Shown here: piece after piece, positions 8,208 to 55,670 of the stretch
Position numbering within the stretch: position 1 is the first letter of the stretch
Layout of the letters: the number at the start of each line of letters is the position of its first letter
IMG/VR virus record: IMGVR_UViG_3300041409_001210
Location: 1 to 58,357 of that record
Reading direction: 5' to 3' (one strand)
DNA from: a virus
Length of the DNA stretch: 58,357 bases
Notes under the pieces: model-generated
Told to the model about the DNA's origin: nothing
What the model saw: the letters and a program-made list of their open reading frames with translations, nothing else
Database searches by the model: none
Translations under genes and position numbers: made by a program

Positions 8208-9218
8208 TCACGCCGCCCATGGGTCGTACGCGGACGGCACTCGCCGCGCCTCGTCGAGGGACAGGGGCTCAGAGGCAACGGCAGGGACTTCCGATTTGTC
8301 ACCCTGCGTCTCGGTCCTGCCGGGTCGCCCAGCTATCCCGGCGGTTATGGGATTGTCTTCGCATCCCGCGCGCTCATTTGTGGATCGCCTAGTTGCGCCA
8401 CGCTGCCTCTGAGCGCCCCCGCCTGGATTCGAACCAGGTACCTGCGGATTAGAACGCCGCTGCTCTTCCGATGAGCTACGGGGGCATGGATCGGGCGTCT
8501 CGATGCCGGCGACGGAGGACGGGGAAGAGATCCGCCCTTGCTCGTGCTTACCTGCGGCTTGACCGGCATCGAGGGTGAGATCGCCCGGCTCACCGCTACG
8601 TCTGCCCCGAGAGGTTCCCTCGGCCGCAGCGGTGAGTCCGACGCTCTCTTGTTCCTGGCCCGATCGAGCAGCGGCTATGCCAACCCCAGGAGGGCCGCTG
8701 CTCGATCCGACAGGCGTTGAAGCTGAGGGCCTGTGTCTCGTGAAGGCGTAGACGCCTGACTTGCCGCGTTTCCGGGCCGGCACCGTGGACGCGCGACGTT
8801 CGCGCTCGAAGATCAGCGGGTTCTTGCCTGACCGCAGAGAGGCGAACTGGCGAGTGGCAAGCTCCCGGCAGCGGTCGACTTCACCGACCGGGTAGAGGTC
8901 GATCAGGTCATCGGCGTGACACTCGCCGCGGATCCTGATCGTGTCGATGATGGCCTGGCGGATCAGGCCGTTCAGGTCGCGGGTGTGTTTGTCGAGGGCG
9001 GCCTGGTCGCGGACCGCTTGCAGGGGATGGGGATCAGTCCCGGCTTTGTCCCGGCTAGCTGCTCGCTGGGCGCGCTTCTTGCAAGCTTCCGAGGCATGGC
9101 GCGCATCCGCCCTCAAGCCGTCGAGAGAGGCTCCGCATCCACAGGCGCAGAAACGCGAGTCGCTGTTGGCCGCCGACCGGTTGGCCGGCGGGGTGACGAT
9201 GTGCTGCGGTGAGGTCAC
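8208..9218 (-). CDS. Hypothetical protein with N-terminal zinc-finger motif, 336 aa; a tRNA gene lies inside
   Basis: Residues about 20-50 (FCACGCGASLDGLRADARHASEACKKRAQR) form a Cys cluster like the short zinc fingers of phage DNA-binding proteins. Residues 80-150 look like a winged helix (LIRQAIIDTIRIRGECHADDLIDLY). From about residue 170 on the protein becomes Ser/Gly/Arg-rich and low-complexity. A tRNA gene on the same strand covers codons for about residues 245-268, so this part translates tRNA sequence (VPGSNPGGG). The true C-terminus is therefore uncertain. GTG start overlaps the YfdQ stop (GTGA). Confidence 0.6.
   Translation of the reverse strand: MTSPQHIVTPPANRSAANSDSRFCACGCGASLDGLRADARHASEACKKRAQRAASRDKAGTDPHPLQAVRDQAALDKHTRDLNGLIRQAIIDTIRIRGECHADDLIDLYPVGEVDRCRELATRQFASLRSGKNPLIFERERRASTVPARKRGKSGVYAFTRHRPSASTPVGSSSGPPGVGIAAARSGQEQESVGLTAAAEGTSRGRRSGEPGDLTLDAGQAAGKHEQGRISSPSSVAGIETPDPCPRSSSEEQRRSNPQVPGSNPGGGAQRQRGATRRSTNERAGCEDNPITAGIAGRPGRTETQGDKSEVPAVASEPLSLDEARRVPSAYDPWAA
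8414..8485 (-). tRNA. tRNA-Arg (anticodon UCU)
   Basis: Full cloverleaf of 72 bases: 7-bp acceptor GCCCCCG/CGGGGGC, D-stem GCTC/GAGC, anticodon loop GTTCTAA (U33, anticodon TCT, A37), 5-bp T-stem CCTGG/CCAGG with loop TTCGAAT, discriminator G. No CCA is encoded. The last pair of the anticodon stem is a C-U mismatch and position 32 is G, both unusual. It would read AGA, a codon that should be rare in such GC-rich DNA. It lies inside an open reading frame on the same strand. Confidence 0.9.
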
Positions 9219-15840: not shown

Positions 15841-16131
15841 CTACGCGGCCTCGCTCTCGGGGGTGGGGTCGGGGTGGGCGCCGAGGAAATCTTCGAAGGC
15901 ACCGAAAGCCGCGTTTTCGATGGCCGTCGCGTACTGGACCCAAAGATCTGCTGCCTCTGGGTTGCTGGCCTCCTTCGCGAACTCGCGCCGCTTCTCCGCC
16001 TCGGCCTTCAGCCGCTCTTGAATCTCCCCGACCGTGAAGCTGCGGAGGCCCCGTGAGGCGCGTCCGGCGTCAACCTGCTCCGACCTCTCACATCCCCCGC
16101 AGTCGTAGGTGAGCGAGATCCTGATTGCCAT
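15841..16131 (-). CDS. Hypothetical protein, 96 aa
   Basis: N-terminal strand ISLTYDCGGCERSEQV carries a CxxC pair; the rest is a helix-rich segment (EIQERLKAEAEKRREFAKEA). The lone CxxC may be half of a zinc site or a dimeric zinc hook. Directly downstream of the XRE repressor gene and therefore the second gene of the leftward early transcript. Confidence 0.6.
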   Translation of the reverse strand: MAIRISLTYDCGGCERSEQVDAGRASRGLRSFTVGEIQERLKAEAEKRREFAKEASNPEAADLWVQYATAIENAAFGAFEDFLGAHPDPTPESEAA

Positions 16132-16361
16132 CAGACCGACTCCACCTGAGCGGGCTCGCGGTCCCAGCCGAGTAGGTGCTCAACGGTTACGCCGAAATGC
16201 TCGGTCAGCGACCGAAGCGCGTCCGTGGGGATAGGGACCTCGCCACTGATCCAGCGACCGATGGTCGTCGTGTCGCGTTCACACAGCGCCGCGATCTCGA
16301 AGCGCTTGGCACCGCTCGCGGCGATGAGTTCGCCGAGGCGGTTGCTCTCAGTCGTCTGCAT
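16131..16361 (-). CDS. XRE-family repressor (Cro/CI-like), 76 aa
   Basis: A single helix-turn-helix domain: LGELIAASGAKRFEIAALCERDTTTIGRWISGEVPIPTDALRSLTEHF (residues 9-58). It is first in the leftward early block and divergent from a second HTH gene, the usual layout of a phage genetic switch. On the minus strand TTGCAC-17-TACAGT ends six bases before the ATG, which predicts a leaderless mRNA. It may act as Cro or as the CI-like repressor; which one cannot be told from sequence. Confidence 0.85.
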   Translation of the reverse strand: MQTTESNRLGELIAASGAKRFEIAALCERDTTTIGRWISGEVPIPTDALRSLTEHFGVTVEHLLGWDREPAQVESV

Positions 16362-19513: not shown

Positions 19514-19547
19514 GCCGAATCCGTCCAGTCCGTGCATCGTGCGCCAG

Positions 19548-19760
19548 GTGCAGCCGAAGGACGTCTTCGCCAAGAACGTCAAGGCCGAGCGGGAATGTCA
19601 GGGCCTCTCCCAGGAGGCGCTCGCCGATCGCGCCGACGGCCTCGATGTCGCCCAGCTCGGCCGGGTCGAGAGAGGGGTATACGACCCGCAGCTACTCACC
19701 ATCACAAGGATCGCCCGCGGCCTCGGTGTCCCGGTCGCCGACCTGCTGCGCGGGGTCTAG
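19548..19760 (+). CDS. XRE-family regulator, 70 aa
   Basis: A compact helix-turn-helix: VFAKNVKAERECQGLSQEALADRADGLDVAQLGRVERGVYDPQLLTITRIARGLGVPVADLLRGV. This is the complete XRE domain, with the SQEALA recognition entry and the RVERG turn. GTG at 19548 keeps only the domain; the frame extends further back without a credible start. It is transcribed rightward between two hairpins and has a palindromic operator upstream. Likely a second repressor in the immunity region. Confidence 0.8.
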   Translation: MQPKDVFAKNVKAERECQGLSQEALADRADGLDVAQLGRVERGVYDPQLLTITRIARGLGVPVADLLRGV

Positions 19761-23706: not shown

Positions 23707-23821
23707 CGGGAATCAACTCCTTCGGGAGTGGGTCTGTCGGTTATGGGAGCCGCGCTGGGCGGCGAGGATCAGGGGGAAGGCAGCGCGTCGGAAGATGCGG
23801 CCTCTTCTTCGGCCGACTGGC

Positions 23822-23850
23822 TTGTCTCGGAAATCGCCCGCAGTTATGGT
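23822..23850 (+). promoter_or_regulatory. Promoter for the rightward gene at 23857
   Basis: TTGTCT (23822-23827), 17 bases, TATGGT (23845-23850), then six bases to the ATG. Same leaderless geometry as the promoters at 17.9 and 30.6 kb. Confidence 0.5.
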
Positions 23851-23856
23851 CGGGCG

Positions 23857-24177
23857 ATGGCGCTTCAGCAGTTCGACTACTTCCCTGCCGAATTCCAGCC
23901 TCGGCGTCGAGATGACTTGACGCCCGCCGCCGCCGAGTGGATCGGCTGGTCAGGCCTTTGGGAAGCAGCCTTCCTGATCGAGGAGGGACCCTTCTGCGGC
24001 GAGTTCGCCTGCACGGTGAAGTTGAAGCGAGACGGCACCTACTCCGGCGGCCGTCCCTATCCACCCGCCGAGGCGTTCGCGTGGGTACCGCAGTTCGATC
24101 TACTACTGCCGACGATCGATGCCGAGGCAACCGCGCGCATCGTCAGGGAGCGACACGAGGAACGCACGAACGCGTAG
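23857..24177 (+). CDS. Lone rightward gene (moron-like), 106 aa
   Basis: The only plus-strand gene in the lysis region. Product: MALQQFDYFPAEFQPRRRDD followed by a strand-rich body with FLIEEGPFCGEFACTVKLKRDGTYSG and FAWVPQFDLLLPTIDAEATARIV. No family recognised. It has its own promoter with the -10 box six bases before the ATG, so it can be expressed independently of the late genes, for example in a lysogen. A superinfection or host-fitness role is inference. Confidence 0.65.
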   Translation: MALQQFDYFPAEFQPRRRDDLTPAAAEWIGWSGLWEAAFLIEEGPFCGEFACTVKLKRDGTYSGGRPYPPAEAFAWVPQFDLLLPTIDAEATARIVRERHEERTNA

Positions 24178-27038: not shown

Positions 27039-27074
27039 CTACGACTGCCGCTTCTCACGCGTAGTGACAGTCAT
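27039..27074 (-). other. 11-codon bridge frame between two tail genes
   Basis: ATG overlaps the stop of the phosphoesterase gene (ATGA), reads MTVTTREKRQS, and its TAG abuts the GTG of the next gene. It is probably a re-initiation bridge, not a functional protein. Confidence 0.3.
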
Positions 27075-29062
27075 GCCTGCACCAGATCTCCCGCGACCTT
27101 GACCCAGCGAATCGCCTGCCCGGTGACGCCGCCTTCGCTGACCCAGACCGTCTTCGGCGGGTCGGCGTCAGGAATCGCCATGCTGACCGCTTCGGCACCC
27201 TGGATCGTCGTCCATTCGTGGGTGCCGTGGTTGCGCGCGAAGACCTTGATTTCGTCATCGAGCCAGCCGAGGAAGAGGCTTACGAGTGGGTCGCTGTCCC
27301 CCGGTTCGGTGCCGGTGTAGGCGGTCGCCGAGGCGTTGATCGTGATCAGGTCCCGCGTGCCCGCCGGGAGCAGTCCGGCGTCGCCCTCGAGGATCGCCGA
27401 GCAGGTGAACTCCAGCGTCTCCCCCGCGGCGAGCGTCGTGGTGCTCTGGTTGCCGACGTAGAGGACCACGTAGGCCGAGCCGGACGGCGCCTGCCCCGCG
27501 ACTTCGGAGCGGAATTTGCCGGTGCCGGTCGCCTGGTTGCCGTAGAAGGTGTCGAGCACTTCGCCGCTTTCGGTGAGGAACTGCATCGCCAGGTTGGGAC
27601 CGGCGGCGCCCTTGGTGGTGACGTTCAGGTCGGCGGCGTAGGCGTAGACCTTGCCGGGGGTCGCTTTCAGTTCTTTGTTTCCCGAGGTGCGCCTGAACCG
27701 GGCGGCGCCGCTCGTGCCGGTCGCGTGGGCTTTCAGGTGGAGCAGGAAGTGGACCGCGACGGTGATTTCGTAGCCGCGCACGTTGCGCCAGTAGAACTCC
27801 GACACGTCGCCGCTCTGGAGCGTTTCCGAGTTGCAGAGACGCATGCGGCAGTAGGCGGCCCCTGCGGGCGCGAGGGCGGTGACGGTGAGCGTCTGTTCCC
27901 CGGTCGCCGTGACCGCGGGGCTGTCGACGCTGGAGATCGCGGCATTCGCGGCCGTGTACCAGGTGATGCGGAACGTCTGCCCGGTCGCCGGCTTCTGGAC
28001 GATTTTCGTGTCGACCTTCAGGTGGTAGAACGTGCCCGGCGTCACCACGAAGAGGCCCGGGGTGGCGGCGGTTTTGCTGCACCACACCTGGGCCGTTTTT
28101 TTGGCGGCCGTGCAGGTGGCCTTGAAGTAGCCGGCGGATTCGCCGCTCCACGCGGTGCTCAGTTCGAATTTTTCTTTCGTCACCCCGGTGCCGCTGACTT
28201 CGGAGAGCCAGTTGGTGAGGCTTTTGAGGTTGCCCGACGCTTCCGGGACGAGGTTGGTCAGGCCGGTGACGACGCCGTTGAAGTCGGTCCCCGCCGAGAG
28301 GTCGTCGAGGACCACGCCGCCGCCGATGCTCGACTGCCAGCCGGTGAGCCCGAGCGAGAAGTCGCCGTTGGGGACCACGACCGGGGTCGAGTTTTCGACC
28401 GTCGCCAACTCCGGCAGGAGGACGTGGCGCTTGATCAGGTCGTAGCAGTCCTTCGCGTTGTGGGTGTGGCCGGATATCGCCAGCTTGACGATCGGATATT
28501 CGTTCAGCAGTTCGCGGATCTGCCGATCGGGGTTGATCGCGAAGAAGGCGAGCGTCGGCGTGTACTGGTTCTCGGTGACGCCCGGTCCGGCGCCGACCAC
28601 GGTGTGCATGAGGGGGTTGTGGTTGACCCAGATCACCGGGCGCCTCGCCGCTTTGAACTGGGCCTCCATCCATTCGAGCGTGGCGGCAGACAGCGTGTAC
28701 GGTTCGACATTCGCGTCGGGGGCAGTGAACACGCCGATCGCGAAGCCGAGGTCGCGGGTGTAGTTCTGGGTGAGGCCGTAGGCGGCGGAGGCGGTGGCCG
28801 AGCTGCGACCGAACATGTCGTGATTCCCCATCGGGGCCGACCAGTCCTCGGGCAGGCCGTCCAGCAGAGCCTTCGGCAGGGAGTCGGTGTGCGGGGAACT
28901 GTCGGTGAGGTCGCCGAGCTGGATGCGGTGGGCGACCGGGATCGGATGCGCCGCGAGGTCGGCGGCGACCGCTTCGGCGCGGGCGGTCCCGTCGTATTCG
29001 GCGCCCGTGTGCATGTCGCCCCAAAGGTGGATTAGGCGGTGGCGCGGCGAGAGGACCGTCAT
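27071..29062 (-). CDS. Tail protein with calcineurin-like phosphoesterase and sugar-binding-like modules, 663 aa
   Basis: Residues 10-205 contain all metallophosphoesterase motifs: WGDMHTG (Asp16, His18), QLGDLTD (Asp51), MGNHD (Asn80, His81), VNHNP (His148) and SGHTHN (His199, His201). The remaining 450 residues hold beta-sandwich-like repeats typical of carbohydrate-binding modules (VVPNGDFSLGLTGWQSS, then FELSTAWSGESAGYFKATCTA). Such a protein may sit at the tail tip, bind the wall and hydrolyse a phosphodiester such as teichoic acid. Start at 29062 is fixed by ATGA with the gene before. Confidence 0.85.
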   Translation of the reverse strand: MTVLSPRHRLIHLWGDMHTGAEYDGTARAEAVAADLAAHPIPVAHRIQLGDLTDSSPHTDSLPKALLDGLPEDWSAPMGNHDMFGRSSATASAAYGLTQNYTRDLGFAIGVFTAPDANVEPYTLSAATLEWMEAQFKAARRPVIWVNHNPLMHTVVGAGPGVTENQYTPTLAFFAINPDRQIRELLNEYPIVKLAISGHTHNAKDCYDLIKRHVLLPELATVENSTPVVVPNGDFSLGLTGWQSSIGGGVVLDDLSAGTDFNGVVTGLTNLVPEASGNLKSLTNWLSEVSGTGVTKEKFELSTAWSGESAGYFKATCTAAKKTAQVWCSKTAATPGLFVVTPGTFYHLKVDTKIVQKPATGQTFRITWYTAANAAISSVDSPAVTATGEQTLTVTALAPAGAAYCRMRLCNSETLQSGDVSEFYWRNVRGYEITVAVHFLLHLKAHATGTSGAARFRRTSGNKELKATPGKVYAYAADLNVTTKGAAGPNLAMQFLTESGEVLDTFYGNQATGTGKFRSEVAGQAPSGSAYVVLYVGNQSTTTLAAGETLEFTCSAILEGDAGLLPAGTRDLITINASATAYTGTEPGDSDPLVSLFLGWLDDEIKVFARNHGTHEWTTIQGAEAVSMAIPDADPPKTVWVSEGGVTGQAIRWVKVAGDLVQA

Positions 29063-29370: not shown

Positions 29371-30546
29371 TTACGGCTCCGGTACCGTGGCGCCGTTGTC
29401 GTCCCAGACGTTGTCCGACCAGACCGTGGGGCCGGAGAAGTAGGCACCCACGCCGTAGTAGCCACCCAGCGGGAAGTAGCCGTTCGAGTCGGTGCTCCCG
29501 GTGCAGGTCGTCCCACCCGAGCTGGATTCGTAATGAGCGCCTCCGAGACACCGCGCGAAACGGTTGCCGGTGATCGTGGTCGTGGCATCAGCCGGAGCGG
29601 TGTTGTTGGCCTGCGGGTAGAGCAGGAACCCGCCGCCGGCGAGCAGGGAGTTCTTGACCGTGAACTGGTTGCCGCCTGAGTCGCCGAAGACGGTCGCAGT
29701 CTGTCCTTCGGCATTCAGCAGCGTCGAATGTTCGACCGTGACCGCTTCGTTCCAGATGTAGACGTCCTCGGCGTGGGCGCCGGAGAAGATGTTGGTGATC
29801 GCGATGTAGGAGTCGCGGATCGTCGGGTTGCCGTATTCCACGCAGTCCGCGCAGCCGACGAAGTAGTCGCCTTCGAGCGTGATGTGGCTGCCGCCTGCCC
29901 AGACCGCGTTCTGGATCGGTTTCGAGACGGCGACGACTTCGCTGTCGACGATCCTGACGCCTGTGTGGCCGTTGACCACGATCGCCTCCGAGCCGTTACC
30001 CGTGGCGGTCGGCGTGACCTTGACGTTTTCGACGGTGACGTTGTCTGCGTTGATCGTCAGCTGACCGCTGATGCTGAGGTTCTTGACGACCTGACCGGTG
30101 GTGGAGGCCGCGACGGAACCAGAGGGAGTCAGAGCCGAGAGCGGCGGGACGCCCGTGTTCGAACGAGCGGGGAGGCCACAGACGGCCGGAGACGCGAAGC
30201 AGTGCAGCGTCCGCGGCGATTCTTCGACCGATTCTTCTTCGACGGGGGGTTCAGTCGGGACTTCGACCATGTTTCCGGGAGGTCCCTGCTTGCCTTCGGG
30301 GCCGGTCAGCCCGCGTTCACCACGTTCGCCCCTTGGACCCTGGGGGCCGGTCGCACCCTGCAGCCCCGTGGCCCCTCGTTCGCCGTGGGGACCCGGCACG
30401 GGCGCCTTGGCTTCGAGGGCGACGACCCGCTGCTTGAGGGCGTTGAATTCGGCCCTGGTCGGCGAGTTCGTGGCGGCGACGACCGCAGGAGGGCCGATCG
30501 CGACGATGGCGATGACGATGGCGAGGAACAGCGTCCGAGATCGCAT
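29371..30546 (-). CDS. Secreted collagen-like / beta-helix protein, 391 aa
   Basis: A signal peptide (RTLFLAIVIAIVAIGPPAVVAA, residues 4-25) is followed by a short coiled coil, then a collagen-like GXY run (about residues 52-90: GERGATGLQGATGPQG), then a linker with two cysteines and a right-handed beta-helix of pectate-lyase type (ITLEGDYFVGCADCVEYGNPTIRDSYIAITN shape, about 170-370). Virion fibres seldom have a signal peptide, so it may be exported and act on the cell surface, or be a fibre with an unusual N-terminus. AAGGAG precedes the ATG. Confidence 0.75.
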   Translation of the reverse strand: MRSRTLFLAIVIAIVAIGPPAVVAATNSPTRAEFNALKQRVVALEAKAPVPGPHGERGATGLQGATGPQGPRGERGERGLTGPEGKQGPPGNMVEVPTEPPVEEESVEESPRTLHCFASPAVCGLPARSNTGVPPLSALTPSGSVAASTTGQVVKNLSISGQLTINADNVTVENVKVTPTATGNGSEAIVVNGHTGVRIVDSEVVAVSKPIQNAVWAGGSHITLEGDYFVGCADCVEYGNPTIRDSYIAITNIFSGAHAEDVYIWNEAVTVEHSTLLNAEGQTATVFGDSGGNQFTVKNSLLAGGGFLLYPQANNTAPADATTTITGNRFARCLGGAHYESSSGGTTCTGSTDSNGYFPLGGYYGVGAYFSGPTVWSDNVWDDNGATVPEP

Positions 30547-30562: not shown

Positions 30563-30592
30563 TTGACGGATCGAGATGGGAACGGCTACGGT
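30563..30592 (+). promoter_or_regulatory. Promoter of the rightward envelope cassette
   Basis: TTGACG (30563-30568), 18 bases, TACGGT (30587-30592), then eight bases to the ATG at 30601. The mRNA would begin at or just before the start codon. Confidence 0.5.
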
Positions 30593-30600
30593 CTGCGCCC

Positions 30601-30876
30601 ATGTTGCGGACGACGCGGTACACGGTCAGAGGGGTGCGCAGGGCGAATCGGGAGTTGAACGGCTGGGTCTCGGCGGCGATCTTGCTGATGGTCCTGCTGG
30701 CCGTCGGGGTTCTTGTCGTGCTCTGGTTCCTCGTCCCGGCCGTGATCGGTGGCGTGGTCTGGATCTACGGGGTTCTGGCGGGGATCGTCAGCGAGCGCGG
30801 GGAGCCGGCCAAGCGCCGAGGGGCAGCGATCGCGGGTGCCCCGTGGCGCGGACTGCAGCGGGCGATCGGCGAATGA
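30601..30876 (+). CDS. Small membrane protein of the envelope cassette, 91 aa
   Basis: Basic N-terminus (LRTTRYTVRGVRRANRELNG), then one long or two closely spaced membrane spans (VSAAILLMVLLAVGVLVVLWFL and VPAVIGGVVWIYGVLAGIV), then a basic tail. First gene of a three-gene rightward island inside the leftward tail block. Its stop overlaps the lipoprotein ATG (ATGA). Membrane proteins of this type in prophages often block superinfection; that is inference. Confidence 0.7.
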   Translation: MLRTTRYTVRGVRRANRELNGWVSAAILLMVLLAVGVLVVLWFLVPAVIGGVVWIYGVLAGIVSERGEPAKRRGAAIAGAPWRGLQRAIGE

Positions 30877-31337
30877 GGCGCCTGGCGGGACTTCTGGTGA
30901 CGTTGGCGGTGGCCGCGCTGGCTGGCTGCGGCGGCGGCACTGGAACTACGGGCGCTACGGCGCGCGCGCCTTCGCGCAGCAAAATCATCAAGTGCGTGAA
31001 TCACGGGGGCGGCGTCAGTCAACAAGAGGTGCAAGCCGAAATAGGCGCGCTTCCTGCGCACGACGAAATCGAAACGCCGGGCCTTCCTGAAGGCGGACCC
31101 GGCGTCCTTGAAGAAGGTGACTTGCCAGGCGCTGTCATCACGGTCGACCTTTTCGGCACCGCATCAGAAGGCAAAGAAGCAGCCGAGATGCTGACCGAAG
31201 AAGAACCCACGGCTGAAGTCCATAGCTATGCAGGCGGCGCTGCCGTCTCAGTCATCGCTCGCGTGGAAAATGAAGGCTCGACCGTCACGTCGGCGCCGAA
31301 GGACAGGCAGCTAGTGGCGAAATGCCTCGGGGCTTGA
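30873..31337 (+). CDS. Lipoprotein of the envelope cassette, 154 aa
   Basis: The N-terminus MRRLAGLLVTLAVAALAGC is a lipoprotein signal with the lipobox LAGC, so the protein should be anchored to the outer face of the membrane through Cys19. The mature part is polar and acidic with two more cysteines (KCVNHGG near residue 42 and AKCLGA at the end), which could form a disulfide. It has ASEGKEAAEMLTEEEPTAEVHSYAGGAAVSVIA, a plausible small alpha/beta domain. No family recognised. Base composition appears less GC-rich than the flanking tail genes. Confidence 0.75.
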   Translation: MRRLAGLLVTLAVAALAGCGGGTGTTGATARAPSRSKIIKCVNHGGGVSQQEVQAEIGALPAHDEIETPGLPEGGPGVLEEGDLPGAVITVDLFGTASEGKEAAEMLTEEEPTAEVHSYAGGAAVSVIARVENEGSTVTSAPKDRQLVAKCLGA

Positions 31338-31366
31338 GATTCGCGCTACCCTTGTCGAGCAATCAA

Positions 31367-31397
31367 GCGCCCCCGCGCCGCTCTAACGGCCGGGGGC
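31367..31397 (+). promoter_or_regulatory. Structured leader hairpin before the metzincin gene
   Basis: GCCCCCG (31369-31375) pairs with CGGGGGC (31391-31397), then a bulged C, an inner 4-bp stem GCCG/CGGC, and a 6-base loop. It lies 12 bases before TGGAGGT and 26 bases before the ATG. A hairpin of the same design precedes the HNH gene at 41593. Confidence 0.55.
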
Positions 31398-31423
31398 ATG
31401 GCCATCTGAACTGGAGGTTCGAG

Positions 31424-31876
31424 ATGACGAAGTGGATTCTAGGAGTGCTGGTCGCTTTGGCGATGCTCATCGGCGCTCCCACTGCAAGCGCCGACACCGA
31501 CGCTCTCGCCGAAGCGCCACCGACGAGCACGCCGATGCCCGCTTTGCCGGTGATCGAATCTCTCGAACCCGTGGCGACTGCCTATTGGGCGCTACGGGGC
31601 GTGACTCTGCCGCCGGTCGAAGTGTTCTACGTCGAAAAGATCCCGAGCGATTGGGCTGCGGCCGAAGAGCCTGGATCGCGGATCTGGCTCACCGAAGCGT
31701 TCCTCAATCAGACCGGCCGCGGCGGCCGCGAACTCCAGTGCATCGTCTGGTTGCATGAGCGCGGCCATACTGCGGGCCTCACCCACGAAAGCCCTGATCC
31801 GGTGATGAACGCCGACCTGGCCGGCGCCCCCGGCTTTCGTGTTCCGCCGAAGTGCAAGGAGTGGGCGCGCTCCTGA
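31424..31876 (+). CDS. Secreted metzincin-like zinc protease, 150 aa
   Basis: Signal peptide (WILGVLVALAMLIGAPTASA, cleaved about residue 23), then a Pro-rich linker and a compact domain. HERGHTAGLTH (residues 111-121) fits HExxHxxGxxH, the zinc-binding signature of metzincins such as matrixins: His111, His115, His121 bind zinc and Glu112 is catalytic. DPVMNAD follows, and Met128 would be the Met-turn. Cys106 and Cys144 may pair. At 150 aa it is short for the class. ATG at 31424 follows TGGAGG. Substrate unknown; the protein should act outside the host cell. Confidence 0.75.
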   Translation: MTKWILGVLVALAMLIGAPTASADTDALAEAPPTSTPMPALPVIESLEPVATAYWALRGVTLPPVEVFYVEKIPSDWAAAEEPGSRIWLTEAFLNQTGRGGRELQCIVWLHERGHTAGLTHESPDPVMNADLAGAPGFRVPPKCKEWARS

Positions 31877-31881
31877 ACGCC

Positions 31882-33858
31882 CTACGTCTCCGGGATAGAC
31901 GAGTAGCAGGGGCAATGCGTGACCTGGACCTTGAATCCGTCCTTCCCGGAGTCGACGATTTCTCCGAACTGACCACGGCTCGGCGCGACCGCGATCTCTA
32001 CCGGCGCTTCTTCGGGGCCGGAGACGGGAAGGCGCGGCAGGTCCGCCCCTGGGTAGCCGATCGGTGCGGCGCCGGCGCCGTCCGAGCTTTCGCGGTACAT
32101 GCCCTGCGTCGAAAGAAAGACGCTCTTGCTCGCGTACATGACGGCGTCTTGCGGCGGGACTGGTGAGGCGAAAAAGTTTCGGTAGATGCGCACGATGACG
32201 GTAGTCGAGCCGTTGAAATCGTTGATTCCCACCTTGCCTTCGGCGTGCGGTTCGCCGCTCTTGAAGGTGGCCGCGATCGTCCTCCGCTGTTCCTGACCGG
32301 CGTGACGAACGATCACTTCGGCTCCGGCGTTGATTTCAGCTTCGAGGGTGCCGTGCTGCCAGATCATCCCTCTGAGAGTGAAGATGGTGAGCACGCCGGC
32401 GACGGAGTATTCGATCTGGACGCTCGAGCCTGCGCCGCCTCCAAACCCCACCACCCTCACCCAGTAGGTGGAGGAAAACCAGCGCAGGTAGATGCCTTGC
32501 GCCAGACTGCCGACAGAAGCCGACGCCGACATTTCGCACCTGACGCGGACTGGGCCTATCGTCGATCCGGCCAGGACAGCGCTGCGACCTTCCGAGTCTC
32601 CTTTGAAGGCACGTTCCGTACCTTCGGCGGTCCGCGTGAAGCCGCCTTTCGAACTCCCCAGTTCTTCCCATTTGCCGCCCGTGATGGCTTCGCTTTCTTT
32701 CAGCATGCCGGTACCGGCAAGGCTGTCATTGGCATCAACCGAGGCAAGCGAGACCGAGGACTGCAACGCCGCCAGCACCCCCGATGACTCGTCCGCACAC
32801 ACGAACCGCAGCCGGTCGATCGAGATGTTCTCGCCGCCCGCTTCCCCGCGGGCCTGGATCACACCCGCCCAACGCTGCGCGCCGAACGGCAGCGCCTTGA
32901 CATTCACTTGGCCGAGCGGCACCCAGACGAGTGCTCCGTTGCCGAATACCTGGATCTGCGTGTTTTCCTGCGGTGCGACGATGTCCCCGACGCCGTAGAG
33001 GAGGCGTAACCAGGGAAGCTTTTCCGAGGTCGAGTAGACCCGCGCCCAGACCGTGTACAGGCCCGCGTGGGTCAGGAAGGTGGTTCCGGCCTTGTTGGTC
33101 GAGAGCACCGGCGTCCAGCCCGTCGAGAGTTTCGGATGTTTGACGACTTTGGTCCCGTAGGAACCGGCGAGCGTCACTTTTTCGGCGATGTCGAGCAGGC
33201 CCAACGCTTCAGCGTTGTAGGCCCATTCGGCCGTGTTCGCCGAGGAGTAGTTGCGGCGCCGGTAGTGCCACATCAGCCCGGCCTGCGCGTTGCCCGACTT
33301 GTCTTCGACCTGCATGTTGGTGACGCGGGCCGGCATGTCGCCGCCGACCTGCATCGTGAAGGCGCCGTCGCCCGTGAATTCGTGGGCGGTCCCGGTGACT
33401 TCTTCTTCGTACCAGTCGGGCAGCCGTTGGAGTTCGAGGGTCGCTTCGCGGTCGACGTCCTTGTTCTCGGCCAGCCAGCTCGAGGAGAAGTGGAGTTTGG
33501 CTTCGGTGAGGTCGGCGAAGCCGTAGCGGCCCGACTTCAGCACCCGTTTGAGACGCCCTCCGCCTTCCTGGTTTATCTGCGCGACCTTCTGCTGGAGCAG
33601 CACCCGCCAGTCGTCGAAGGACATCGCTTCGGTGGCCTTGATGATCAGCGGGATCTTGACCGGGATCAGCGGCCAGACGTGGTCGATCGGCGTCGACCCG
33701 AAGACGCCTTCGGCCATGAACTGTTTGACCTCCTGGTCGCCGAAGTCGAGGCCCTGCCAGTAGATTTCGATGCCGCCTTCGGTGAGGTCACCGGTGAGCC
33801 CCAGTTCGGTGCGGCCGGGACTCGCTACCTCTTCCGGGTCCAGGATCACCGTCTGCAT
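31882..33858 (-). CDS. Distal tail / minor tail protein, 658 aa
   Basis: Directly follows the tape measure (TGATG overlap), the usual place of the distal tail protein. The N-terminal 200 residues (LGLTGDLTEGGIEIYWQGLDFGDQEVKQFMAEG and PVKIPLIIKATEAMSFDDWRVLLQQKVAQINQEGGG) resemble Dit-type domains of siphoviruses. The rest contains beta-sandwich modules with Trp/Tyr-rich strands, similar to carbohydrate-binding domains. It probably forms the ring at the tail tip and may bind the cell wall. Confidence 0.8.
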   Translation of the reverse strand: MQTVILDPEEVASPGRTELGLTGDLTEGGIEIYWQGLDFGDQEVKQFMAEGVFGSTPIDHVWPLIPVKIPLIIKATEAMSFDDWRVLLQQKVAQINQEGGGRLKRVLKSGRYGFADLTEAKLHFSSSWLAENKDVDREATLELQRLPDWYEEEVTGTAHEFTGDGAFTMQVGGDMPARVTNMQVEDKSGNAQAGLMWHYRRRNYSSANTAEWAYNAEALGLLDIAEKVTLAGSYGTKVVKHPKLSTGWTPVLSTNKAGTTFLTHAGLYTVWARVYSTSEKLPWLRLLYGVGDIVAPQENTQIQVFGNGALVWVPLGQVNVKALPFGAQRWAGVIQARGEAGGENISIDRLRFVCADESSGVLAALQSSVSLASVDANDSLAGTGMLKESEAITGGKWEELGSSKGGFTRTAEGTERAFKGDSEGRSAVLAGSTIGPVRVRCEMSASASVGSLAQGIYLRWFSSTYWVRVVGFGGGAGSSVQIEYSVAGVLTIFTLRGMIWQHGTLEAEINAGAEVIVRHAGQEQRRTIAATFKSGEPHAEGKVGINDFNGSTTVIVRIYRNFFASPVPPQDAVMYASKSVFLSTQGMYRESSDGAGAAPIGYPGADLPRLPVSGPEEAPVEIAVAPSRGQFGEIVDSGKDGFKVQVTHCPCYSSIPET

Positions 33859-41011: not shown

Positions 41012-41593
41012 TTAGTCGGGCTGGTCGTGGTGCCGCGCGCCGTGGCAGTCGCGACAGAGCCACTCGACATCGAGCGGCTGCGAATAGTCGGGGTGATGTG
41101 CCTGTATCGGAGCGCGGCCGTCCGCGTAAGGCTGGCCTGGTCCATGGCACGTCTCGCAGATCTTGGGACGCACAAGGTCGCCGCGGTTCAACGCCGCGGC
41201 GACAGCAGTTCTCGCCTCGTATTTCTCTGGGTAAGCGGCCCGGAGTCGATCGCGTTTGGCGGCTAGACGCTCCGGGTTGTCGGCTTCCCACTGCTCATCG
41301 GTCGCCTTCTTGCGCTCGCGGTTCTCTTGCCGCCAGCGAGCGGCCGTGGCGCTACGGCGCTCCGGATTGCGCTGCGCCAACTCACGGACTCGGTCAGGGT
41401 TCTCAGCTCGCCATCGCACTCGATTCTCGGTGACGCGCTCGGGATTGTCCTGCGCCCATTTCTTTGCGTATTCGCGCTGGCAGTCCTTACAGTTCCATGC
41501 GGCACCGTCGGTGCTCTTGGCGCTCTTGTGGAACTCGCCGAGCGGCTTCTCCTCGCCGCAGCGGGAGCAGCGTTTGTACGCTGGCTCTGGCAT
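41012..41593 (-). CDS. HNH homing-type endonuclease, 193 aa
   Basis: A zinc finger (CSRCGEEKPLGEF and CKDC, residues 9-36) is followed by a charged region with four NPER/NPDR motifs (about 45-120), then CETC, PIQAHHPDYSQPLDVEWLCRDCHGARH: the HNH ββα-metal core (His-His ... Cys-x2-Cys-His). This is the build of free-standing HNH endonucleases that invade phage genomes. It sits between the tail chaperone and the tape measure, outside the usual gene order. ATG at 41593 follows GGAGG; a leader hairpin lies before it. Confidence 0.88.
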   Translation of the reverse strand: MPEPAYKRCSRCGEEKPLGEFHKSAKSTDGAAWNCKDCQREYAKKWAQDNPERVTENRVRWRAENPDRVRELAQRNPERRSATAARWRQENRERKKATDEQWEADNPERLAAKRDRLRAAYPEKYEARTAVAAALNRGDLVRPKICETCHGPGQPYADGRAPIQAHHPDYSQPLDVEWLCRDCHGARHHDQPD

Positions 41594-41614
41594 CTGGCTA
41601 CCTCCAGGTGTCCG

Positions 41615-41646
41615 GCCCCCGGGTGTTTCGACCACCGCGGGGGCGC
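41615..41646 (-). promoter_or_regulatory. Structured leader hairpin before the HNH gene
   Basis: On the minus strand GCCCCCG, a bulged C, inner stem GGTG, loop GTCGAAA, CACC, then CGGGGGC. Outer stem and bulge are identical to the hairpin at 31367-31397 while the inner stem differs but still pairs. TGGAGGT and the ATG of the HNH gene follow. Confidence 0.55.
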
Positions 41647-41664
41647 TTTTACGTGTGGGGAATT

Positions 41665-55596: not shown

Positions 55597-55670
55597 CGCG
55601 GGGATGAGCAGCCCGGTTGCTCGCTGCGCTCATATCGCAGAGGTCGTGGGTTCGAATCCCATCCCCGCAA
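55597..55670 (+). tRNA. Initiator-type tRNA-Met (CAU)
   Basis: 74 bases: acceptor CGCGGGG/CCCCGCA with the C1xA72 mismatch that marks bacterial initiator tRNAs, D-stem GAGC/GCTC (A11-U24, also typical), anticodon stem CTGCG/CGCAG with loop CTCATAT (anticodon CAT), variable AGGTC, T-stem GTGGG/CCCAT, T-loop TTCGAAT, discriminator A. No CCA. The three G-C pairs normally at 29-31/39-41 are changed in the middle pair (G, C, G), and position 38 is U. Confidence 0.87.

What the first reader, a model, noticed from the sequence alone, without database searches (positions are those of the whole stretch)
30563..31876. Rightward envelope cassette: membrane protein, lipoprotein and secreted metzincin-like protease
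Three overlapping or close genes run against the tail genes with their own promoter. All are sent to the envelope: a TM protein, a lipobox lipoprotein and a signal-peptide protease with HExxHxxGxxH plus a Met-turn. Their base composition looks less GC-rich than the flanks. A small secreted metzincin in a phage tail block, linked to a lipoprotein, could be a lysogenic-conversion or superinfection-exclusion system that cuts surface proteins.
Basis: partly seen in the sequence, partly recalled or inferred. Interest (0 to 1): 0.75.

Follow-up and report, generated by a model that had tools for sequence, protein, structure and literature searches.

The report
Phage-borne secreted mini-metzincin cassette
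A soil phage carries, backwards inside its tail genes, a small gene for an exported zinc protease of a phage family missing from the reference libraries, and the gene starts behind a conserved hairpin that unrelated phages put in front of their mobile endonuclease and integrase genes.

Summary
The three rightward genes are real: a TM protein (30601-30876), an ATGA-coupled lipoprotein (30873-31337) and a Sec-exported protein with HERGHTAGLTH plus Met-turn (31424-31876). No curated family claims them, but a motif scan recovered 23 further phage contigs coding the same exported mini-metzincin. With 25 sequences AlphaFold2 gives a confident model (pLDDT 83.6) whose best PDB matches are metzincins, and the family profile hits matrix metalloproteinases (E 3e-9). 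Full-length cellular relatives occurred only in Thermoleophilia. The gene often lies convergent to structural genes, with abutting or overlapping stops, so it reads as a moron.

The unexpected part is just upstream of its start: a hairpin (31365-31407) with compensatory stem changes, shared with metzincin genes of other phages. The same hairpin stands mostly 22-31 nt before start codons of HNH, GIY-YIG and integrase genes in many phages, and before an endonuclease gene in this genome (41606-41648). It is not in Rfam.

The substrate is unknown; the nearest characterised analogue is the Listeria prophage Mtz-Tim pair.

The parts
30601..30876 (+). P0003, 91-aa membrane protein with two hydrophobic stretches; no significant family match
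30873..31337 (+). P0001, 154-aa lipoprotein (lipobox LAGC); start overlaps the previous stop (ATGA)
   Evidence: lipobox and overlap read from sequence
31365..31407 (+). Leader hairpin, 11 pairs with one bulged C, shared with metzincin genes of other phages and with endonuclease and integrase genes
31424..31876 (+). P0002, 150-aa exported mini-metzincin: signal peptide about 1-23, HERGHTAGLTH 111-121, M128, one retained pair of family-conserved Cys; stop 5 nt from the convergent tail gene
31882..33858 (-). 658-aa tail-block protein directly downstream of the tape-measure-sized gene, border of the insertion slot; homologues in G001 and G004
29371..30546 (-). Collagen-like tail fibre with signal-like N-terminus, divergent from the cassette
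41606..41648 (-). Second copy of the leader hairpin (37.4 bits), ending 12 nt before the endonuclease start
41012..41593 (-). Free-standing endonuclease gene (phrog_2340 E 2e-34; endonuclease VII/HNH type) behind the second leader

Best explanation
The cassette is a moron: an accessory gene unit inserted convergent to the tail operon. Its constant core is the leader hairpin plus P0002, a minimal matrixin-like metzincin exported by Sec, held by a disulfide and acting outside the membrane of the infected cell. I think it cuts envelope or surface proteins, most likely to loosen the envelope around lysis as the Listeria Mtz-Tim pair does, with the upstream lipoprotein as anchored partner (substrate or inhibitor). 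The hairpin lies in the 5' leader just ahead of the ribosome site and probably sets when or how strongly such late-acquired genes are expressed. Shown: export signals, motif, predicted fold, family, antisense convergent setting, leader conservation and covariation. Inferred: proteolysis, substrate, timing, partner role.
For: Family of 25: window, 23 contigs by motif scan, and L086. All 25 match Pfam Peptidase_M10, best 5e-9; profile hits MMP-8 at 2.8e-9. Model pLDDT 83.6; the 50 PDB matches listed are all metzincins. 10 of 25 members lie in antisense islands against 35 of 398 background genes. 12 of 17 convergent members abut or overlap the neighbour's stop against 11 percent of background convergent pairs. 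The same tail slot carries lipoprotein plus metzincin in L086. Leader. Analogue with measured effect: PMC8235301.
Against: P0002 itself is below the Pfam cut-off (12.9 against 24 bits). Foldseek E-values are marginal (0.007 upward) and TM-scores low (0.33-0.45). L086 has HAVGH, so one member has lost the catalytic Glu. Partner genes are not conserved. Only about five of the family members carry the leader. No promoter, substrate or expression data exist. Island and stop statistics treat related loci as independent.
Confidence: 0.55

Rival explanations
1. Superinfection exclusion or lysogenic conversion: the exported protease removes a surface receptor or changes the surface of the infected cell.
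For: Export signals and antisense placement fit a gene expressed apart from the tail operon. Repressor-like HTH proteins occur in the early region.
Against: No integrase family was found among 44 scanned proteins. The capsid protein has only one weak relative (24 percent identity) in 299 Thermoleophilia genomes, so there is no sign of a common prophage.
Confidence: 0.2
2. The protein is carried by the virion or released with it and helps tail penetration through a protein surface layer.
For: Located in tail or baseplate blocks in many phages.
Against: Opposite strand to virion genes, Sec signal peptide, and some members lie outside tail blocks (L092, L095, L104).
Confidence: 0.1
3. A binding protein on a metzincin scaffold, proteolysis being dispensable.
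For: L086 HAVGHLMGLAD lacks the catalytic Glu and has Asp for the third His.
Against: The Glu is kept in 24 of 25 members (23 of them were found with a pattern that demands it) and in the separately found L163/L205 protein.
Confidence: 0.12
4. The hairpin is not an expression element but a terminator, an operator, or a DNA recombination mark left by insertion of mobile genes.
For: GC-rich long stem; association with endonuclease and integrase genes.
Against: Distance is fixed to the downstream start (22-31 nt in most copies), strand orientation follows that gene, and a bulge and flanks are kept. A terminator there would cut off the gene it precedes.
Confidence: 0.35

Closest known systems
Listeria Mtz-Tim pair (PMC8235301)
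   Same: Phage-associated secreted metzincin next to a lipoprotein in a Gram-positive host
   Different: Listeria order is metzincin then lipoprotein, beside a cI-cro switch; here the lipoprotein comes first, a TM gene precedes it, no repressor is adjacent, and the lipoprotein was not shown to be TIMP-like
Matrixins, peptidase family M10
   Same: HExxHxxGxxH and Met-turn, profile similarity, predicted fold
   Different: About 125-aa mature protein, no room for a cysteine-switch prodomain, family-specific conserved cysteines, P0002 under the Pfam cut-off
T4-type homing endonuclease leaders, notably seg43 of Aeromonas phage 25 (PMC2988022)
   Same: Very stable hairpin immediately upstream of the ribosome site of a mobile endonuclease gene
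   Different: Here one conserved sequence and structure recurs across unrelated genes and phages, including exported proteases
ESAS of cluster K mycobacteriophages (PMC3203893)
   Same: Inverted repeat at a fixed place before start codons of unrelated phage genes
   Different: Different sequence, no SAS motif, one or two copies per genome here instead of many

Membership tests
Metzincin clan | HExxHxxGxxH/D zinc motif and Met-turn | tested here: met
   H111, E112, H115, H121, M128; conserved across the family
Metzincin clan | Metzincin fold | tested here: met
   Model pLDDT 83.6; best PDB matches metzincins, but E-values marginal and TM-scores low
Metzincin clan | Zinc binding and peptidase activity | not testable with these tools
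   needs protein
Peptidase M10 (matrixin) | Pfam gathering score | tested here: not met
   P0002 12.9 bits against cut-off 24; other members match with E down to 5e-9
Peptidase M10 (matrixin) | Cysteine-switch propeptide | tested here: not met
   Only about 20 residues between signal peptide and catalytic domain, no such motif
Listeria Mtz-Tim type pair | Secreted metzincin with adjacent lipoprotein | tested here: met
   also L086
Listeria Mtz-Tim type pair | Metzincin upstream of lipoprotein, cI-cro switch adjacent | tested here: not met
   Lipoprotein is upstream; the HTH genes at 16131-16361 and 19539-19760 are over 10 kb away
Listeria Mtz-Tim type pair | TIMP-like fold of the lipoprotein and its cleavage by the metzincin | not tested
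Phage moron | Accessory gene absent from some relatives, inserted between conserved genes | tested here: met
   Slot holds other genes in G001 and is absent in L089
Phage moron | Own promoter and terminator | tested here: inconclusive
   No + strand sigma-70-like match; actinobacterial signals not covered
ESAS/SAS of cluster K phages | SAS motif GGGATAGGAGCCC next to the start | tested here: not met
   Sequence before 31424 lacks it (motif from PMC3203893)
Any Rfam family | Covariance-model match of the leader | tested here: not met
   No match at E up to 1 in the window (tRNAs only) or up to 0.5 in seven leader loci

The most novel reading that the evidence does not exclude
The leader hairpin is an undescribed class of phage regulatory RNA that marks mobile or late-acquired genes across unrelated phages, and an exported mini-metzincin family has joined the set of genes that use it, giving phages a plug-in expression signal for cargo such as homing endonucleases, integrases and surface proteases.
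Probability: 0.45. Interest if true: 0.82.

Novelty: new variant of a known kind. Interest (0 to 1): 0.7.

Why it matters
It adds a family of exported phage proteases, absent from PHROGs, with a likely host class (Thermoleophilia), and it offers a sequence and structure tag for finding phage cargo genes. If the hairpin controls expression, it would explain how newly inserted genes, even ones facing against the operon, are expressed at the right time, a question that simple reporters can test.

Tried and rejected
Direct search of P0002 and P0001 in viral contigs, and of P0002 in bacterial genomes, found nothing, because the family is too diverged; a two-sequence alignment also failed. Single-sequence folding gave a useless model. 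Sequence homology between the flanks of L093 and the window was not detectable, so the shared slot is positional only. The antisense secreted ORF in G001 (L085) has a similar signal peptide but no zinc motif and was not kept by the gene caller, so it was not counted as a member. A GC dip as evidence of import was rejected. A capsid search for prophages in Thermoleophilia gave one weak hit. The Acinetobacter phage record with Matrixin genes matches only around the motif and is treated as a separate case. The weak leader matches at window 18935 and 8411 (the latter overlaps a tRNA) were not accepted. A 50-nt consensus leader found no match in cultured phages by blastn, a weak test for so short a query.

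Full report
The window is one IMG/VR virus record of 58,357 bases with terminase, portal, capsid and a tape-measure-sized gene on the minus strand. The cassette runs rightward between the fibre gene at 29371-30546 and the 658-aa tail-block gene at 31882-33858. All three genes exist as described. A gene caller trained on the structural genes scores coding sequence at each of the three loci. The claimed GC dip is absent and no rightward sigma-70-like promoter was found.

P0002 has no match above cut-off in Pfam, PHROGs or NCBIfam, and none in solved structures by single sequence. Terminase relatives led to related records. In the 59-kb relative G004, right after the homologous tail gene and on the opposite strand, lie a lipoprotein and then an exported protein with HAVGHLMGLADSSDPYNVMY; it aligns with P0002 at 35 percent identity by the aligner's count. 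In G001 the slot holds an antisense signal-peptide ORF without the motif, and in L089 nothing.

A degenerate DNA pattern for CxxxxHExGHxxGLxH in viral contigs returned 27 stretches. Twenty-three of them encode proteins of 95-221 aa of one architecture, nearly all with a clear signal peptide: a YWG-like motif, four conserved cysteines, the zinc motif, a Met-turn (the other four were a different protein or lacked the peptide motif). The window protein lacks the first two of the four cysteines together and keeps the last two, which suggests two separate disulfides. All 25 aligned members match Peptidase_M10, best E 5e-9, and the family profile matches MMP-8 at 2.8e-9. With this alignment AlphaFold2 reaches pLDDT 83.6, over 90 through much of the domain, and the listed PDB matches are all metzincins, though with marginal E-values and low TM-scores. 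PHROGs has no family for it.

Host. Full-length matches occur in 13 of 299 Thermoleophilia genomes; in 297 genomes across the phylum only the Thermoleophilaceae seed genome matches full length, the rest only around the zinc motif. The cellular copies that I inspected sit mostly among chromosomal genes. In the tree, phage and host members are not cleanly separated, the backbone is weak, and the window protein groups with L090 (97/95). Thermoleophilia is therefore the likely host class, by inference.

Setting. Ten of 25 members lie in short antisense islands, against 35 of 398 background genes. Of 17 members convergent with the next gene (L163 included), 12 lie within -20 to +15 nt of its stop, seven with a 4-nt overlap, against 11 percent of 71 background convergent pairs. 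These counts include related loci and are descriptive. Flanking genes include tail fibre, baseplate, tape-measure and head-closure proteins. A lipoprotein is the neighbour in the window and L086, and weakly in L092; L163 has a membrane protein upstream instead. These partners are not alignable, so the metzincin is the constant part.

Leader. DNA comparison of window and L086 showed one strong block outside the coding sequence, 38 of 46 bases, just before the metzincin start; L093 has it too, and L101 has a weaker form at the same place. It folds into an 11-pair hairpin with a bulged C. A model from three leaders also finds a copy at 41648-41606 before a gene that is an endonuclease (37.4 bits). 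A pattern for the outer stem in viral contigs gave 70 stretches. In 88 percent of 69 readable cases an ORF start lies 18-36 nt after the stem, against 8 percent for random positions. The three inner pairs, which the pattern does not fix, are complementary in 52, 58 and 50 of 61 distinct elements, against 23-25 when partners are shuffled; the alignment count agrees, with 106 two-sided changes against 36 in shuffles. Of 56 downstream proteins, many are HNH (HNH_3 11, HNH_5 5, HNH 5, NUMOD4 5, overlapping sets), endonuclease VII (3), integrase (3-4) or GIY-YIG types, and a further exported metzincin, antisense to baseplate and fibre genes, occurs in L163 and L205. The pattern is absent from 297 genomes of the actinobacterial phylum, and no Rfam family matches. 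The set contains some near-duplicate contigs, and the pattern was derived from metzincin leaders, so the real range may be wider.

Literature. Hairpins before phage homing endonuclease genes are known in T4 relatives, including one that leaves the ribosome site free (PMC2988022), and ESAS repeats are known in cluster K phages (PMC3203893). I found no report of this element in the searches made, which cover open-access papers only. The closest functional precedent for the proteins is Listeria Mtz-Tim, where the metzincin cleaves a lipoprotein and the pair sensitises cells to phage lysis (PMC8235301).

Mechanism. The best-supported reading is a moron whose product is exported and cuts proteins at the envelope. 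That it aids lysis is inference from the Listeria case. The leader most likely acts in the transcript because it keeps distance and orientation to the start codon, but no experiment separates this from a DNA role.

Noticed in passing
window 41012-41648 (-): A free-standing endonuclease gene between the tape-measure-sized gene and the next tail-block genes carries the same leader hairpin.
   Followed up: yes
L086 6396-7028 (-): Metzincin-like protein with HAVGH, the catalytic Glu replaced, third ligand Asp: a possible inactive member.
   Followed up: partly
L108 1385-1609 and L114 2565-2909: A second small exported protein (MKLKVLAVSLL...) sits next to the metzincin in two related phages, as an alternative partner.
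   Followed up: no
L189 67-525 (+): The leader and an MTKWI start precede a different exported protein, as if leader plus signal peptide were re-used.
   Followed up: partly
L121, L125, L126, L129: Host chromosomal family members lie near genes for secreted proteins of one repeated type (VGLGTAASFSVLGGSTVTNTGPT and similar).
   Followed up: no
window 23743-24177 (+): Another rightward ORF of 144 aa with moderate coding score inside the leftward late region, no Pfam match.
   Followed up: partly
window 27071-29062 (-): Tail-region protein with a weak calcineurin-like phosphoesterase match.
   Followed up: no
L085 7399-8232 (-): Antisense ORF with a signal peptide like that of P0002 in the same slot of G001; not kept by the gene caller.
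   Followed up: partly
window 8413-8485 (-) and 55598-55669 (+): tRNA-Arg(tct) and tRNA-Met(cat) genes.
   Followed up: no
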